NCBI RefSeq assembly: GCF_023910635.1 | Contig: NZ_JAAVVZ010000006.1 | Span: forward strand, 1-64,000 | DNA from: Sphingorhabdus sp. | GTDB taxonomy: Bacteria; Pseudomonadota; Alphaproteobacteria; Sphingomonadales; Sphingomonadaceae | Direction of reading: 5' to 3' | Length of the DNA stretch: 64,000 nt | Shown here: positions 43,942 through 51,270 of the stretch, piece after piece | Layout of the letters: the number at the start of each line of letters is the position of its first letter | How positions within the stretch are numbered: the stretch's first letter is position 1 | Translations under genes and position numbers: made by a program | Notes under the pieces: generated by a model | Told to the model about the DNA's origin: nothing | The model's database searches: none | What the model saw: only the letters and a program-made list of their open reading frames with translations

Positions 43942-44634
43942 ATGCCTTTGCCGCCGAGAAAAGCAAAAATCGAAACATCCAACGACAATCGAAAGCGGCA
44001 ACGCCACAAACTTTTTCTCGAAGTTGAAGGCGGGGAACACGGCACCGCGTCAGATGCAGTTTTGGTCCACGACATCTTGGATACAGGCTTGCTTATCGAA
44101 ACCAAATCCGAATTAGGCGTGGGCGAAATCATAGAGGTCAACCTTCCCAATGTCGGCGTGATGGAAGCGGAAATCATGTGGGCCGGTGGGCAAATCTATG
44201 GCTGCAAATTCACGCGAGAACGCACGCAAGCAGCCATCAGCGCGGAGCTACTCGGCGCGCGCTTTACGCTGACCAATTCTGTGGCAGTGGATGCTGTCAC
44301 CGACACGGCAAAAGGCGGCATAATGGGCCATGATGCATCGACCGAGGGCCTATCCTATGCCAGAAAATTGTGGGTCAACGTCGGGATGGTGCTTTCGTTA
44401 GGGACCATGGCCGCCGCTGCGGTTTTTTGTTTGGTTTTCGAACCGGGATCAATGGCCATTATGGATATCGGGGTCAAAAGATGCTTTTGCTTATGGGAGA
44501 TAGGCCCGCCGCCTCTCTTGAAGCATGATCGGTCCGTATTGGTAAAAAATAAGATCAATCGGCACGGCGTAAGAAATGCTTATGTCGACATAGCTGACGC
44601 CGTTACTGGTCCCCCTGCTCACCGCCGGCGTTGA
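43942..44634 (+). CDS. PilZ-domain protein with read-through C-terminus
   Basis: This ORF of about 230 aa has a PilZ-like domain at its start. The RxxxR arginines are present (RKRQR), while the second DxSxxG motif is degenerate (DILDTG). A membrane helix follows near residue 160 (WVNVGMVLSLGTMAAAAVFC). The C-terminal 45-50 residues are read antisense through the end of tadE, which looks complete. That suggests the PilZ gene has lost its natural stop codon. ATG 43942 follows GGGA; the TTG at 43897 is less likely. Confidence 0.65.
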   Translation: MPLPPRKAKIETSNDNRKRQRHKLFLEVEGGEHGTASDAVLVHDILDTGLLIETKSELGVGEIIEVNLPNVGVMEAEIMWAGGQIYGCKFTRERTQAAISAELLGARFTLTNSVAVDAVTDTAKGGIMGHDASTEGLSYARKLWVNVGMVLSLGTMAAAAVFCLVFEPGSMAIMDIGVKRCFCLWEIGPPPLLKHDRSVLVKNKINRHGVRNAYVDIADAVTGPPAHRRR

Positions 44635-44892
44635 AACTGTGCCATTTGTTATGCCGTATAGGCTGCTGGAAACAATCGTCCGGATTTGCGCATCGGTCAT
44701 CGGTGTTGCGCCGATATAGACCGTTGTCGCGCGCGCGCCTGTGTCGATGGCGTGCCGAAGCCCGGCATTGGCCAGCAAGATGAGCCCGAATTGCGCCATT
44801 CCATAAAACAACAACACAACAAGCGGCACCGCCAAGGCAAATTCGGTTGCAGATGCGCCGGAGTCATTTTTGCGATATTTGGACAACAGCAT
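44491..44892 (-). CDS. tadE: TadE-like pseudopilin
   Basis: This 133-aa protein has the typical TadE N-terminus: a basic stretch, then GASATEFALAVPLVVLLFYGMAQFG, with the membrane helix that serves as a pilin-like signal. The remaining 90 residues form the periplasmic part. It starts by TGATG overlap with the upstream TadE-like gene. The 3' end overlaps the convergent PilZ ORF by 144 bp. Confidence 0.85.
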   Translation of the reverse strand: MLLSKYRKNDSGASATEFALAVPLVVLLFYGMAQFGLILLANAGLRHAIDTGARATTVYIGATPMTDAQIRTIVSSSLYGITNGTVSTPAVSRGTSNGVSYVDISISYAVPIDLIFYQYGPIMLQERRRAYLP

Positions 44893-45365
44893 CACTGAAT
44901 CCTTACAGAAGCATCGCCCTCAACCCGAACAAAGCCATTGGCGTCCGTGGTGAGAAAATTGCCATAATTCACAGCGGGCGAAAATTTGCCGCGAATGCGT
45001 ACTTTGACAAATCGGGCGATCTGAGAGCCAGCCGTTGTGCAGGTTGCCGTAAACGTGCTTTGGACGGCATTGTTGCACTCAAGCCAATAGGTCACGGTCA
45101 CGTCGGACACGGCAACATTTGCGGCCGCCGCAGCCTCGGCACGACTTGCGGTATAGTCTGTCTTCACGCGGGAAAAAGCGGTGATCTGCTCCACGGCTCT
45201 GGCGGCGGCAGCCTCTACCCGCAGCTTTTCGGCGAATCCCATCGCAGAATCGATCGCACCCAATAAAAGCAGCAAGCCAACCGGAAAAATCAGCGCCAGC
45301 TCAATAGTGCTTGTCCCGCGGCTATCCTGCCGGGCGGCGTTCAAAACTTTGATGATATGCGCCAT
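44892..45365 (-). CDS. Second TadE-like pseudopilin
   Basis: This 157-aa protein shows GTSTIELALIFPVGLLLLLGAID after a short basic N-terminus, as in TadE/TadF proteins, and a soluble domain with two cysteines. It lies between the TadG-like gene and tadE with tight spacing. ATG 45365 is preferred over the TTG at 45368. Confidence 0.82.
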   Translation of the reverse strand: MAHIIKVLNAARQDSRGTSTIELALIFPVGLLLLLGAIDSAMGFAEKLRVEAAAARAVEQITAFSRVKTDYTASRAEAAAAANVAVSDVTVTYWLECNNAVQSTFTATCTTAGSQIARFVKVRIRGKFSPAVNYGNFLTTDANGFVRVEGDASVRIQ

Positions 45366-45369
45366 CAAA

Positions 45370-46623
45370 TCACCCGACCAACCTTACCTGCGTGCCTTCA
45401 AAGGTATCCGCCGCCGTCCCGACGGGACAGTCGTTGGTAATCTTGGTATTGCCTGTCATGACCACTTTACGCGATACGATCTGCAGGCAATCGGTCGCAA
45501 ATGTGGAGTTTCCGTTCAATGTCACGGTTTGTGAGGGCATGTAAATTGCGCCTAGAAACGACCCCGATGCCCCGCCGTTGAACACGTCATTATAGGATGC
45601 AGGCGCGCTGGGATCTTTGAAAAAGAGGACGCCCTTATATTTGCCGCTTGCCGGAGCCGCCATTTCAATATCCGCGCCACCGTTCATTTTAACCTGTCCA
45701 ATGTCTGTCCCGGTTCCGGTCAAAATGATTGTGACGCCGATGGCGGTGATTTCGGATTGGGCATTGGTTTCAAAATCCCCACTTTTGATATAATAGGTGC
45801 CCGGATTCATGGTCAGCTTGCCGCGCACGTTGATACCAGTGAAACAGCCGGGGTTGATCGTTATATTTTGTTTGTTGCCTACGGTCAGCGAATTGCCGCT
45901 ACACACGGCCGGCGCCTCTGCCGTTGGATCTCCAAGCGCAGCAAACGGGTTTCGTTGCGGGATGGAATAAGGGACAAGCTGCGTCCCATTGGCGTAGTTC
46001 GCACTGGCGGGCACATTCCCCACCGCAGCAACCGGCGACGCCCGCACAAAAGTCGAACCTTCTGCGGTTACGGCGCTACTGCCTGTGGAATTACTCGCGA
46101 CACCGCAACCCAAATCGACGGTCGAGTTGCCCGAAAATGTCACGCCATTTGCGTTCGTATCCTCAAGTGAAATGACGCAATAGTCGCCATTGTTCAGCAC
46201 CGCAGCAATTGCCTCCACTTTAATCAATGGCGGATCTGACAAAAACAAACTCGAAAAGGGAAGCGCTTTACTATAGGTCAAAACAACCTTGACCGCGCGA
46301 GGGTCTCCGGCAAATTTTCCTGCTGTCGGCGCGTTCTCAACTGTAACACCAACCCCGGTAAATGCATCAAGCGTTTTGGCCAGATCATTATTGGCATTAT
46401 CGCTTACGCTCTTGGCCTGTGCCTTGGCATAAGCGCCGTTCAACGCAGCCGAATCGGCACTTCGCTGCAATTGCAGCTTCATTAAAGTCCATTGGATGGT
46501 GTCGGTTCCAAGGCCTGCGAGACCGACAAGCAACGGCATGGAAAGACCCATAAGGATCAATACATTACCCCGTTCATTGGTGCGTAGATTGCGCATGAAG
46601 CCGTCTAACTTACGCATGTTCAT
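45370..46623 (-). CDS. tadG: TadG-like protein (Tad pilus N-terminal domain)
   Basis: This protein of about 417 aa starts with a helix NERGNVLILMGLSMPLLVGLAG, the TadG N-terminal pattern, followed by a large polar exported region with glycine- and asparagine-rich segments. No von Willebrand A motif is evident. The ORF in the track begins 91 codons upstream in a Cys-rich stretch that looks non-coding. The ATG choices 46623 and 46617 are close and neither has a strong ribosome-binding site. The Tad export ATPase and secretin genes are absent here. Confidence 0.8.
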   Translation of the reverse strand: MNMRKLDGFMRNLRTNERGNVLILMGLSMPLLVGLAGLGTDTIQWTLMKLQLQRSADSAALNGAYAKAQAKSVSDNANNDLAKTLDAFTGVGVTVENAPTAGKFAGDPRAVKVVLTYSKALPFSSLFLSDPPLIKVEAIAAVLNNGDYCVISLEDTNANGVTFSGNSTVDLGCGVASNSTGSSAVTAEGSTFVRASPVAAVGNVPASANYANGTQLVPYSIPQRNPFAALGDPTAEAPAVCSGNSLTVGNKQNITINPGCFTGINVRGKLTMNPGTYYIKSGDFETNAQSEITAIGVTIILTGTGTDIGQVKMNGGADIEMAAPASGKYKGVLFFKDPSAPASYNDVFNGGASGSFLGAIYMPSQTVTLNGNSTFATDCLQIVSRKVVMTGNTKITNDCPVGTAADTFEGTQVRLVG

Positions 46624-46767
46624 GTCCCATGATGTCGAAAAATCCCTGCATTTACGCCAGTCTTTATCGCGTAATTTAGTTAACAACTGCTGTGAGAATT
46701 CGGTAAGCAAAAGCTTAAGGGCGCATTGCGTAAAGCGAAGCGACTGACGGGCAGCATAAGGGCGGAC

Positions 46768-48033
46768 ATGGTGATTTTGCAGCAGGGACAGGGATTGATC
46801 GGCATCTTTTTGATCCTGACGCTCGCATGGGCATGCTCCGAAGATCGCGCCGCACGGCCGTCTTGGCGCTGGATTTTCGGCGCGCTTGTCTTGCAAATTG
46901 CGCTCGCGCTGGCGGTGACACGGGTGCCGTTTATCTGGACCCTGGTCGGCTATGCCAACAATGCGGTCGCGGCAGTGGAAAAGGCGACATTGGTCGGATC
47001 AAGTTACATGTTCGGCTATACCGGCGGCGCGCCAATCCCGTTTGTGCTCAAGCCCGGCGTGGAACAGCCCATAATCGTCGCATTTCAGATATTGCCGCTC
47101 ATCATCGTCTTTTCCGCGCTCTCGGCCTTGTTATGGCATTGGGGCATCTTGCGCGCTGCGGTCCGTGGCCTGTCCTGGGCATTGCGCAAGACCCTGGGCG
47201 TCAGCGGCGTCGTCGGGCTGGGCGGCGGCGCGACAATGTTTCTGGGCGTTGTCGAATCCCCCCTTGTCCTGCGGGCGTGGTTTGAACGGATGAGCCGGGC
47301 CGAATTGTTCATGATCATGGTGTTGATCATGGCCACCATCTCCGGCGCTATCCTTGTCCTATATGCCACCACCTTGTCCAAAACCGTGCCGGACGCCGTT
47401 GGCCATATGATTGTCGCCTCGCTCATTTCCTTACCCGCCGCTGTCCTCATCGCGCGGCTGATGGTCCCTGGCGATGGCAGCATGAGCGCAGAAGATGCCG
47501 ACGCTGACCTGAAATATGAAAGCAGCATGGACGCGGTCATCAAAGGTACGATGGAGGGCATCCAATTGGTGCTGGCCGTCATCGCCATCATCATCGTCGT
47601 ATTTGCCTTGGTCAATTTGACCGACCAGTTGCTGGCCTTGCTGCCCCAAGTGGATGCACAGCCGCTCACCCTCAAACGTATTTTTGGCTGGCTGTTCGCG
47701 CCGTTGATGTGGAGCATTGGCATCCCTTGGGACCAAGCACCAGCGGCAGGGGCATTGATGGGCACCAAGACCATCCTCAACGAATATGTTGCCTATCTTG
47801 ATCTCGCCGCCTTGCCCGCCGACAGTTTTGACGCGCGCAGCAAGCTGATCATCACTTATGCCTTATGCGGGGTTGCAAACCTTGCCAGCGTCGGCCTGTT
47901 GGTATCGACCATCGCCACGCTCGCCCCCACACGGCGCGCAGAGGTCTCCGCTCTGGGTATGAAAAGCTGGGTCGCCGGCAATATGGCCTCTGCGATGACG
48001 GGCGCAGTCATTGGCCTTGTCACCTTGGCCTGA
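46768..48033 (+). CDS. CNT-family nucleoside transporter
   Basis: This 421-aa integral membrane protein has about ten helices. The conserved concentrative-nucleoside-transporter elements are visible: QILPLIIVFSALSALLWHWG, the GTKTILNEYVAYLDL stretch and the final YALCGVANLASVGLLVS. It is expected to take up nucleosides coupled to protons or sodium. ATG 46768 follows AAGGGCGG. It is divergent from tadG. Confidence 0.9.
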   Translation: MVILQQGQGLIGIFLILTLAWACSEDRAARPSWRWIFGALVLQIALALAVTRVPFIWTLVGYANNAVAAVEKATLVGSSYMFGYTGGAPIPFVLKPGVEQPIIVAFQILPLIIVFSALSALLWHWGILRAAVRGLSWALRKTLGVSGVVGLGGGATMFLGVVESPLVLRAWFERMSRAELFMIMVLIMATISGAILVLYATTLSKTVPDAVGHMIVASLISLPAAVLIARLMVPGDGSMSAEDADADLKYESSMDAVIKGTMEGIQLVLAVIAIIIVVFALVNLTDQLLALLPQVDAQPLTLKRIFGWLFAPLMWSIGIPWDQAPAAGALMGTKTILNEYVAYLDLAALPADSFDARSKLIITYALCGVANLASVGLLVSTIATLAPTRRAEVSALGMKSWVAGNMASAMTGAVIGLVTLA

Positions 48034-48531: not shown

Positions 48532-49707
48532 TCATGCGGCTTGCTGCTTGATCGTCTCCATCAATGTTTTCATTTTGTCGATGGTATAGAGCATGCTCTG
48601 CATTTTGCTTTTGTCGCCCAGAAGATTGCTAACGCGTGCGTCGATCTTGCTCACTACCTTGGCAGAGACATTATCCTTGGCTTTGTCGCGCATGGCCTCA
48701 AGCTGTCCAAGATAACCGAAGGGCGCTGTGAACGAAACGGTCCCTAGGCCAACCGTTTTGTCGTCACCGCTGTAATGGAAAACCGCGCAGGCTTTAAGGT
48801 TGATCGTATCCCCGTCGATACTGTCAACACCAAGGTAGAGCGTCGCCGTCACATGTCCGCCATAGATGATTTTGATGGGAATAATTTTTCCGCAGGACCC
48901 GGTGTCGGAGCCCTTCATTTCCCGGAGACGTTTGACGACGTTGAGCGGTTGGCGGCCATCATCGGACCATTGCAGCCAGGACGCATATACAAAGCGCTCT
49001 TCAAGCTTGCTTTTATCGAGCCCTTTGGAGGAAAGCCCCGAGGCAACGGACTTCATGTTCGATTTACAATAATCCAGCTCTGTCGTTATCGTTGTCGTCT
49101 GATCGCCATCGGGCGATCCACAGATGTTCGATATGAAGGGAAAAAACTGCAACTGCATTCCCATTTGTATGGTTCGATCATACCCGTCATAGCTGGGCGT
49201 AGCACGCGCATAGCGTTGAAATAACGTTATCCCATTGTCTTTGATGTCATTGAACTTTTCAATCCGTTGCTGCAGCTTTGCTGCTCTGCTCACCAAAAGG
49301 CAGAATTTATCGCGGACCCGCTCATATTTGGCCTCTTGGTCAGAAGTGAGCGCAACCCCTTTTGCCTTGAGCGTATTATACGCAACCTGCGTGGCGCACA
49401 GATTGCTTGCATAGCCGATTTTCTGCGCGGCGGTCGTGTCCGTATAGGTGATCGGGTTTGGCATTGAGTCCACGTTTTTGTAGACATCTCCGCCGCTGCT
49501 AAATGACATATTGTAGACGGTGTCATCGGCGCCTTTGGGATCTTTCACCGCAAAATAGCTTTGATAAGACGCATTCATGCTGTCGACATCGGGCTCATAA
49601 TCGGCATAGGCGCTCGCGTTCGCGTCAATATCCTGCGCAAACAATACTCCGGACGTTCCCATCAGCAATGCAACAGAGGCTGCCTTACATATTTTATACA
49701 TTTTCAT
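48532..49707 (-). CDS. Secreted protein of unknown function
   Basis: This 391-aa protein begins with a signal peptide (KMYKICKAASVALLMGTSGVLFAQ) and has no family I recognise. The mature part has several cysteines, an extended helical segment rich in Lys/Glu near residues 120-165, and a C-terminal helical region (KVVSKIDARVSNLLGDKSKMQ). It lies 108 bp downstream of the lipoprotein-secretin gene in the same orientation, so it may be cotranscribed. I prefer ATG 49707 because AGAGGA lies 8 bp upstream. Confidence 0.75.
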   Translation of the reverse strand: MKMYKICKAASVALLMGTSGVLFAQDIDANASAYADYEPDVDSMNASYQSYFAVKDPKGADDTVYNMSFSSGGDVYKNVDSMPNPITYTDTTAAQKIGYASNLCATQVAYNTLKAKGVALTSDQEAKYERVRDKFCLLVSRAAKLQQRIEKFNDIKDNGITLFQRYARATPSYDGYDRTIQMGMQLQFFPFISNICGSPDGDQTTTITTELDYCKSNMKSVASGLSSKGLDKSKLEERFVYASWLQWSDDGRQPLNVVKRLREMKGSDTGSCGKIIPIKIIYGGHVTATLYLGVDSIDGDTINLKACAVFHYSGDDKTVGLGTVSFTAPFGYLGQLEAMRDKAKDNVSAKVVSKIDARVSNLLGDKSKMQSMLYTIDKMKTLMETIKQQAA

Positions 49708-49815
49708 CAAAAAAATCCTCTAAAACGGCTGTCCGCAATATTGTCATTCGGTGTCGCAATTGACTGATTATGGCGTTGCATGATGCCGGTTTTTGCCGCG
49801 GCGCCGATGCTAAAT

Positions 49816-51270
49816 TCATCCTAATTTCGCAGGCAATAACAGGCTCATAACCGGCGCGGGTGCTTCTGACGGGCGTCGTCCATATTGCGTAGGCGAAAGC
49901 AAAGCTGCTCCAAAAAGCATTTGGCTCCATTCGGCGGGGCTGCGCGTTGAAAGGCCCTGACCATTGGGTGGCCGGACCGTGAGCACGACCAGAACTTCGC
50001 GACGATCGACCGACGTGCCGCGACGTGAAAGCCCCGGAAGAGCCATCGGCGTTACCGAACGGTTGTTGGTGCTGCGCCGATTCAGGGAATCTCCCGATCC
50101 GACCACTATCGCCTTACCATAAGGTAGCTTCACGGACACTTCGACGAGGGTTTTGTCGGTCTCAAGTATACTTGCACCCCGCCCGACATTCACGGCAGAC
50201 TGTCCGGTAATGTTCGACATTTCCAAAACCACGTCTAGATCTACGTCAGTTGGACCAATCCGCTGCGGCGTTACTTCCAACGTCACACCGACATCGCGTT
50301 CAATCGGCTGGCTCCTGTCCGAGAGGGGAACGATCAAGACCGATGCACCTTCGGAGAATTTGGATTTGCGGCCTTCGCGGGCGAGGACGACTGGACTTGC
50401 CTCAAGCGTGACGCGTGAACTGCTGCTCGACGCGAGGTTGAGCGAATAATTGATTGCAGGGGCGGTGACCGTCAGGTTCCCTGTCTGCGTGCTCGCATCA
50501 GCCCCTGCCAGATCATAATTATAATTGAGCAAAGTTCCGCCGAACTGGACAGAAAGCCCATCAAGCAGATTAAGGCCCCTATTTCCCGTTGATGTGCGGT
50601 TTTCACGGATCAGATACGCTTCGATCACCACGCCTTCACCTGCGCCAACCACGGCATCGGGTGCTGTGCTGATTGATGATGGGGCAGTGGCCGGTAATTC
50701 GGTGCGGCTAGCGGACGAAGCTTGTGATGGTACAGGGCGCCAGCTTGTTCCTGCAAACGCCGCATCCAGAAATCCGAGCCCTGCGGTATCTAAGTCCGAC
50801 GCTCGGTCCGCCTGGGCCAAGGCCACACGCGCAAATTCTGGTTCGCCCGCGCGATATGCCAGCAGCGCCAAGGGAACAGCCATTGGCCCCGCTGCACCGC
50901 GCCGTTCAACGGCTTGGGCCATAAGACCCATGGCCTCTCGGATATTGCCAAGCTGGTAGGATGTTACAGATGCCCCCGCGAGCGGTTCCCACAGATCTGG
51001 CGCCAATCTCGCGGCTGTCTGAAAACCGCTCAACGCCATTTCCAGATCACCCCGCGTCACAGACGGCCCACTCAGGAAACCCATAGCAACTTCGTAATGC
51101 GCGGCAGCCGAAAGCGGATTGTGGCGAACGGAAGCAAAGCCGTCCGCTTCGACCGGCCGACCGATCCCCGTCATTGCACCTTTCATGTGCACCGGGGCGC
51201 AGCCTGCGGAAAGCAAAGCCATTAATATCACGAGGTTCAAAGACCATATTGGGTTACGCGTTGCCATCAT
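49816..51270 (-). CDS. Lipoprotein with TPR-like region and secretin domain
   Basis: This 484-aa protein starts with a lipoprotein signal peptide (lipobox LLSAGC, cysteine at residue 24). Residues about 50-160 resemble TPR helices (AAHYEVAMGFLSG, LAPDLWEPLAGASVTSYQLG, RGAAGPMAVPLALLAYRAG). The C-terminal part has the secretin-like pattern: repeating beta strands of the form DVGVTLEVTPQRIG and LDVVLEMSNITG, then LPYGKAIVVGSGDSLNRRS, with LVVLTVRPP at the end. Secretins normally have an N0/N1 array before this. Here that region is replaced by TPR-like sequence. It may form an outer-membrane pore for the Tad-like genes, but the ring-building capacity is unproven. Confidence 0.8.
   Translation of the reverse strand: MMATRNPIWSLNLVILMALLSAGCAPVHMKGAMTGIGRPVEADGFASVRHNPLSAAAHYEVAMGFLSGPSVTRGDLEMALSGFQTAARLAPDLWEPLAGASVTSYQLGNIREAMGLMAQAVERRGAAGPMAVPLALLAYRAGEPEFARVALAQADRASDLDTAGLGFLDAAFAGTSWRPVPSQASSASRTELPATAPSSISTAPDAVVGAGEGVVIEAYLIRENRTSTGNRGLNLLDGLSVQFGGTLLNYNYDLAGADASTQTGNLTVTAPAINYSLNLASSSSSRVTLEASPVVLAREGRKSKFSEGASVLIVPLSDRSQPIERDVGVTLEVTPQRIGPTDVDLDVVLEMSNITGQSAVNVGRGASILETDKTLVEVSVKLPYGKAIVVGSGDSLNRRSTNNRSVTPMALPGLSRRGTSVDRREVLVVLTVRPPNGQGLSTRSPAEWSQMLFGAALLSPTQYGRRPSEAPAPVMSLLLPAKLG

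What the first reader, a model, noticed from the sequence alone, without database searches (positions are those of the whole stretch)
48532..51270. Lipidated TPR-secretin fusion with a secreted partner of unknown function
A lipoprotein carries TPR-like repeats followed by a secretin-like C-domain, an order I do not know from standard secretins, which have N-domains instead. The next gene in the same orientation is an exported protein with no recognised family. Along with the TadE/TadG genes 2 kb away, this may be a minimal or unusual secretion system.
Basis: partly seen in the sequence, partly recalled or inferred. Interest (0 to 1): 0.65.

Follow-up and report, generated by a model that had tools for sequence, protein, structure and literature searches.

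The report
Lipid-anchored TPR-secretin with exported partner
This gene pair encodes a small outer-membrane channel of an apparently unnamed type, in which the helper that normally escorts such channels is built into the channel protein itself, next to an unknown exported protein; relatives occur in bacteria that seem to have no other machine able to use such a channel.

Summary
The 484-aa protein (49816-51270, minus) has a lipobox, a TPR-like helical domain and a divergent but significant secretin domain, with no room for N-domains. The next gene (48532-49707) encodes an exported protein without a known family. Both are under purifying selection, and partner and this type of secretin were found only together: three of 45 genomes of the genus, plus Sphingopyxis panaciterrulae, where the two genes are convergent. 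The Tad link is not supported: TadE/TadG are separated by two opposite-strand genes and are absent around the pair elsewhere.

The protein belongs to a wider group of TPR-secretins in about 5% of sampled Alphaproteobacteria and some other Pseudomonadota. Their secretin domains formed one clade, apart from the GspD- and RcpA-type secretins sampled. Three near-complete genomes with an intact gene have it as their only secretin and lack the T2SS/type IV pilus platform protein. I found no description of this architecture in the open-access library.

Best reading: a self-piloting liposecretin, in which the lipidated TPR domain does the work of PilF/TadD pilotins, forming an outer-membrane channel for its exported neighbour without a dedicated type IV-filament motor. 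Ring formation and transport are inferred, not shown.

The parts
49816..51270 (-). TPR-secretin gene, 484 aa
   Evidence: ORF; Pfam Secretin over cut-off; one of four secretins of the genome; dN/dS 0.09-0.15
51199..51270 (-). Lipoprotein signal peptide ending in the lipobox LLSAGC (Cys24; +2 residue Ala)
   Evidence: Sequence; PROSITE-type lipobox also in the G025, G168 and Sphingopyxis orthologs
50737..51180 (-). TPR-like helical domain, about residues 31-178
   Evidence: Own TPR profile; profile vs consensus TPR proteins in the PDB; AF2 helices and Foldseek
49960..50640 (-). Secretin domain, about residues 211-437 (Pfam core 282-431); the P-LGDIP turn of most relatives is shortened to ALPGLSRRG
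   Evidence: Pfam, PHROG protein IV of M13 E 1.4e-10, profile vs GspD/RcpA/PilQ structures, Foldseek, alignment
49816..49959 (-). C-terminal tail ending LLPAKLG; ends LLPSKLN in both genus orthologs
   Evidence: Alignments
48532..49707 (-). Exported partner protein, 391 aa; mature part probably from about 49632; helix, beta domain, long C-terminal helices in a low-confidence model
   Evidence: ORF; only found with the pair-type secretin; dN/dS 0.06-0.10; no family; AF2 pLDDT 44, no fold match

Best explanation
A self-piloting liposecretin with a dedicated exported partner. [quoted passage not shown] The lipidated N-terminal TPR domain does in cis what the separate TPR-lipoprotein pilotins PilF/PilW/TadD do in trans for PilQ and RcpA: it holds the secretin domain at the membrane while a ring of roughly 12-15 copies assembles. 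The ring makes a gated outer-membrane channel without N0-N3 domains, so it has no ordinary docking surface for a T2SS or pilus platform. The neighbouring exported protein is its cargo or its periplasmic plug or adaptor. Shown here: domain order, lipobox, missing N-domains, secretin homology, pair conservation, one clade in the sampled set, and genomes where this is the only secretin and there is no T2SSF platform protein. Inferred: lipidation, ring, channel, cis-piloting, direction of transport, and partner as cargo.
For: Secretin and TPR homology. Lipobox in all four pair-bearing orthologs. TPR-secretin gap of 15-33 residues in this clade. Pair present or absent together in the genus, kept adjacent in Sphingopyxis at 50%/28% identity despite convergent orientation. 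Partner not found in 401 order genomes or 226 family genomes outside genomes with the pair. TPR-secretins form one side of a fully supported branch against GspD/RcpA-type secretins. In G642, G643 and G672 (99% complete, intact gene) it is the only PF00263 match, with no PF00482 match and either no PF00437 match (G642) or only partial or marginal matches (G643, G672). Exported neighbours recur in other branches: in nine genomes a CxxCDLRY pentapeptide-repeat protein lies directly next to the TPR-secretin. RcpA-TadD precedent: the TPR lipoprotein TadD is needed for RcpA assembly and binds its C-terminal tip (PMC10499894). Liposecretins that reach the outer membrane without pilotins are on record (Viarre 2009, cited in PMC4311626).
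Against: This clade is among the most divergent: 35-bit Pfam score, long branch (1.39), shortened P-LGDIP turn, and a different C-terminal tail from the FLYY-like ends of many relatives. The monomer model is low confidence (pLDDT 53), so the barrel is not modelled reliably. This host does have a T2SS and two Tad systems, so machine-free function is suggested only for distant relatives, not for this genome. The partner has no fold match, and nothing shows that it crosses the outer membrane.
Confidence: 0.5

Rival explanations
1. Satellite secretin: the TPR-secretin forms an outer-membrane pore but borrows the inner-membrane motor of the resident T2SS or one of the two Tad systems, with the partner as a substrate of that machine.
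For: G000, G025 and G168 all hold T2SSF and T2SSE homologs and canonical secretins; a complete gsp locus and two Tad loci lie elsewhere in G000.
Against: No N-domain to dock on a motor; three near-complete genomes with intact TPR-secretins have no T2SSF and no other secretin; no motor genes were recognised in the pair's flanks in the other three genomes.
Confidence: 0.2
2. Envelope scaffold or sensor, not a pore: a lipoprotein whose TPR domain binds the partner, with a degenerate secretin domain that oligomerises but does not open a channel.
For: Strong divergence of the secretin core in this clade; TPR domains are binding scaffolds; in a related branch a histidine kinase/response regulator lies beside the gene.
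Against: Purifying selection on the gene; relatives keep well-scoring secretin cores (about 73-100 bits in Pfam outside this clade).
Confidence: 0.2
3. Part of an orphan Tad-like system with the tadE/tadE/tadG genes nearby.
For: Proximity in this one genome; TPR lipoprotein plus secretin recalls TadD plus RcpA.
Against: Two opposite-strand genes in between; tadE/E/G absent around the pair in the other three genomes; the secretin domain does not group with RcpA-type secretins; two Tad loci already present.
Confidence: 0.04
4. A domesticated filamentous-phage export protein (pIV type).
For: PHROG protein IV of M13 matches residues 213-433 at E 1.4e-10; pIV is an N-domain-poor secretin (7ofh among the Foldseek hits).
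Against: No phage genes recognised around the pair; the group is spread over the phylum with long branches; pIV sequences were not placed on the tree.
Confidence: 0.06

Closest known systems
Liposecretin (HxcQ type, T2SS)
   Same: Secretin with its own lipobox, able to reach the outer membrane without a separate pilotin (from knowledge; Viarre et al. 2009 as cited in PMC4311626)
   Different: HxcQ is a T2SS secretin with N-domains that works with Hxc machinery (knowledge); here there is a TPR domain instead and no gsp genes nearby
RcpA-TadD (Tad secretin and TPR pilotin)
   Same: TPR lipoprotein plus secretin with a reduced periplasmic part; [quoted passage not shown]
   Different: One fused polypeptide here; no VirB9-like N-domain; no Tad genes conserved with it; secretin domain in a separate clade
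PilQ-PilF/PilW and RhcC2-Y4yS
   Same: TPR lipoprotein supporting a secretin; RhcC2-Y4yS reported in PMC4311626
   Different: Two proteins, part of T4P or T3SS; the window protein scores far below every NCBIfam secretin model
pIV of filamentous phage
   Same: Secretin with few periplasmic domains; PHROG match E 1.4e-10
   Different: No TPR, no lipobox, works with phage pI/pXI (knowledge); no phage context recognised here

Membership tests
Secretin superfamily (PF00263) | Secretin domain above the curated cut-off | tested here: met
   35 bits vs 27.5, residues 282-431
Secretin superfamily (PF00263) | Oligomeric double-walled outer-membrane barrel | not testable with these tools
   Monomer model only, pLDDT 53; top Foldseek hits are secretins but at low TM-score
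T2SS GspD (TIGR02517) | Score above the NCBIfam cut-off and N0-N3 domains | tested here: not met
   12.5 bits vs 351; 33-residue gap between TPR and secretin
T2SS GspD (TIGR02517) | Encoded with gsp genes | tested here: not met
   No gsp genes at the pair; the gsp locus with its own GspD is on another contig
Tad secretin RcpA/CpaC | Groups with RcpA-type secretins and lies in a tad cluster | tested here: not met
   Separate clade; tadE/E/G not conserved beside the pair
TPR pilotin (PilF/PilW/TadD) | Lipidated TPR protein | tested here: met
   Lipobox; TPR by profile and model; lipidation itself not tested
TPR pilotin (PilF/PilW/TadD) | Separate protein acting on another secretin | tested here: not met
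   Fused to a secretin domain
Liposecretin | Lipobox on the secretin itself | tested here: met
   Pattern in all four orthologs of the pair clade
Filamentous phage pIV | Phage assembly genes such as pI/Zot nearby | tested here: inconclusive
   None recognised by reading the flanks; no dedicated search for Zot was run
TPR-secretin clade (defined here) | TPR domain, then secretin domain, no N-domain, one clade on the secretin domain | tested here: met

The most novel reading that the evidence does not exclude
An undescribed class of stand-alone outer-membrane secretin, self-piloted by a fused lipidated TPR domain, that moves dedicated exported proteins across the outer membrane without any type IV-filament or T2SS motor, with lineage-specific partner proteins. 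The window carries one variant with its own partner family.
Probability: 0.35. Interest if true: 0.8.

Novelty: new variant of a known kind. Interest (0 to 1): 0.55.

Why it matters
Secretins are known as the outer ring of larger machines: T2SS, T3SS, type IV pili, Tad and filamentous phage. A clade with pilotin and channel in one chain, present as the only secretin in near-complete genomes without the T2SS/T4P platform protein, would show that a secretin can serve as a simple outer-membrane exporter. It would also give a compact model for the open question of what a pilotin does, since the two parts can be cut apart in one gene. It points to two families (the TPR-secretin clade and the exported partner) that the annotation libraries used here do not recognise as such.

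Tried and rejected
Tad linkage: rejected. Mobile island at tRNA-Thr: the tRNA 3' end has no second copy in the window, and no plasmid record holds the partner. The only plasmid hit to the secretin is a distant TPR-secretin in Asticcacaulis. Partner function by fold: the model is poor (pLDDT 44) and the best PDB match has E 0.098, so nothing was read from it. Partner function by sequence: no Pfam match over cut-off, no NCBIfam match over cut-off, no PHROG match, PDB best E 0.72. Promoter and terminator scans gave no more sites than shuffles. L043 (Pyrinomonadaceae) is TPR only, not a TPR-secretin. The literature library covers open-access papers only, so absence of a description is not proof. 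G747 was left out of the 'intact' count because its TPR-secretin is split over two reading frames.

Full report
WHAT IS THERE. On the minus strand, 49816-51270 encodes a 484-aa protein and 48532-49707 a 391-aa protein (ATG at 49707), same strand, 108 bp apart. The first starts with a hydrophobic signal and the lipobox LLSAGC. Its C-terminal half matches Pfam Secretin over the curated cut-off (35 bits vs 27.5) and PHROG protein IV of M13 (E 1.4e-10). The TPR part is weak in the single sequence (Pfam E 0.061; no significant PDB hit alone) but clear by profile: a six-protein alignment led by the window protein matches designed consensus TPR proteins (E 4.5e-29) and, in its other half, GspD, RcpA and PilQ structures. 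That profile includes relatives with clearer TPRs, so it speaks for the family and, by alignment, for this member. The AF2 model (mean pLDDT 53) gives paired helices at pLDDT mostly 67-85, then a beta region, and Foldseek pairs it with secretins and a consensus TPR, with low TM-scores for the secretins.

NO N-DOMAIN. With profiles cut from the family alignment, the TPR part ends 33 residues before the secretin domain. N-domains are about 80 residues, so none fits.

THE PARTNER. The second protein has a signal-peptide-like N-terminus and no match over cut-off in Pfam or NCBIfam, and none of note in PHROGs or the PDB. Its model is poor (pLDDT 44) and has no fold match. It is nevertheless under strong purifying selection: dN/dS 0.06-0.10 against 0.09-0.15 for the secretin (NG86, with dS above 1 for the window comparisons, so rough).

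LINKAGE. In 45 genomes of the genus the partner occurs in three, and these are the genomes with the close secretin ortholog. It was not found elsewhere in 401 order genomes or 226 family genomes. The genome-contig scan named relatives: Sphingorhabdus rigui, a Sphingomonadales MAG, and Sphingopyxis panaciterrulae at 49% identity in the secretin. In Sphingopyxis the partner (28% identical) lies next to the secretin but in convergent orientation. Linkage that survives a change of orientation is better evidence for a shared function than operon order alone. Flanks differ: the two other genus members share neighbours on one side, with a type I secretion locus or a TIG-repeat autotransporter on the other side; the window has a tRNA-Thr and flagellar genes.

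TAD. The tadE/tadE/tadG genes at 44491-46896 are real, but a nucleoside transporter and a DUF6481 gene on the other strand lie between them and the pair, and tblastn finds none of them around the pair in the other genomes. The genome has a complete T2SS locus and two Tad loci, each with its own secretin (genes named by reading the translations). The Tad link looks like coincidence.

THE WIDER FAMILY. TPR-then-secretin proteins were found in 15 of 289 sampled class genomes and 8 of 299 sampled phylum genomes at E <= 1e-32, the window's own genome counted in each; a few of these matches cover the secretin part only. On a tree of the secretin domain alone, 29 TPR-secretins and 37 GspD/RcpA-type secretins fall on two sides of one fully supported branch. 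Caveats: the TPR-secretins were found with profiles that include the TPR part, domain limits came from a TPR-secretin profile, the canonical set is all from one order, several branches are long, and PilQ, SctC and pIV from other phyla are absent. So 'one clade' holds for this sample only.

MACHINE-FREE GENOMES. I asked whether genomes with a TPR-secretin also have motor parts. G642, G643 and G672 (99% complete, intact gene) have the TPR-secretin as their only PF00263 match and no PF00482 platform protein. G642 has no PF00437 ATPase; G643 and G672 have one partial match each in frames of 330 and 356 aa, the size of VirB11-type ATPases (my reading), plus marginal ones. G747 shows the same secretin and platform pattern, but its gene is split and it has a CpaF-like ATPase match with a stop. 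A T3SS was not excluded by a dedicated search. This is the main evidence that the family can work without a type IV-filament motor. It concerns distant relatives: the window's genome has such motors.

OTHER PARTNERS. In nine genomes an exported pentapeptide-repeat protein with a CxxCDLRY motif lies directly beside the TPR-secretin. In the branch with the Asticcacaulis plasmid gene, exported proteins of no known family recur nearby. So exported neighbours seem to be a habit of the family, with different partners in different branches; this was not tested against a background rate.

MECHANISM. TadD and PilF are TPR lipoproteins that help RcpA and PilQ; [quoted passage not shown] RhcC2-Y4yS is a further pair, and that paper notes secretins that are lipoproteins and travel without pilotins (PMC4311626). 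A lipidated TPR domain fused to a secretin is most simply a pilotin in cis. Many relatives end in FLYY-like residues, which could be the peptide bound by the TPR groove; the genus orthologs end in LLPxKL instead. This last point is speculation.

NOVELTY. No paper describing this architecture was found (open-access library only). It is a secretin, so a new variant of a known kind. Interest 0.55: the clade and the motor-free genomes are surprising, but pore, lipidation and transport are untested, and this member is among the most divergent.

Noticed in passing
window 44491-46896 (-): Orphan tadE-tadE-tadG triad, not similar at E 1e-3 to genes of the two Tad loci fetched from the same genome.
   Followed up: partly
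L108-L110, L112, L113, L088-L097: Exported pentapeptide-repeat protein with a CxxCDLRY motif directly beside the TPR-secretin in nine genomes; one copy scanned also carries a solute-binding domain.
   Followed up: partly
L075-L077: Histidine kinase-like gene, in two loci with a response regulator-like gene, beside or close to the TPR-secretin in one branch.
   Followed up: no
L036 11580-15591: Tandem copies of exported proteins sharing GGDITNFNVKNCTQQRMFVCSFDK next to the TPR-secretin in Pacificimonas.
   Followed up: no
L035 1265-8173: 2302-aa TIG-repeat autotransporter directly upstream of the pair in Sphingorhabdus rigui.
   Followed up: no
L024 12118-19962: LapG-like cysteine protease and type I secretion-like genes beside the pair in G025.
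   Followed up: no
L105, L106, L107: TPR-secretins kept in genomes of only 0.6-0.8 Mb, in one case two tandem copies.
   Followed up: no
PDB 8jvb / 9wfd: Best fold match of the model is a secretin of Acidithiobacillus caldus for which no paper was found in the library.
   Followed up: partly
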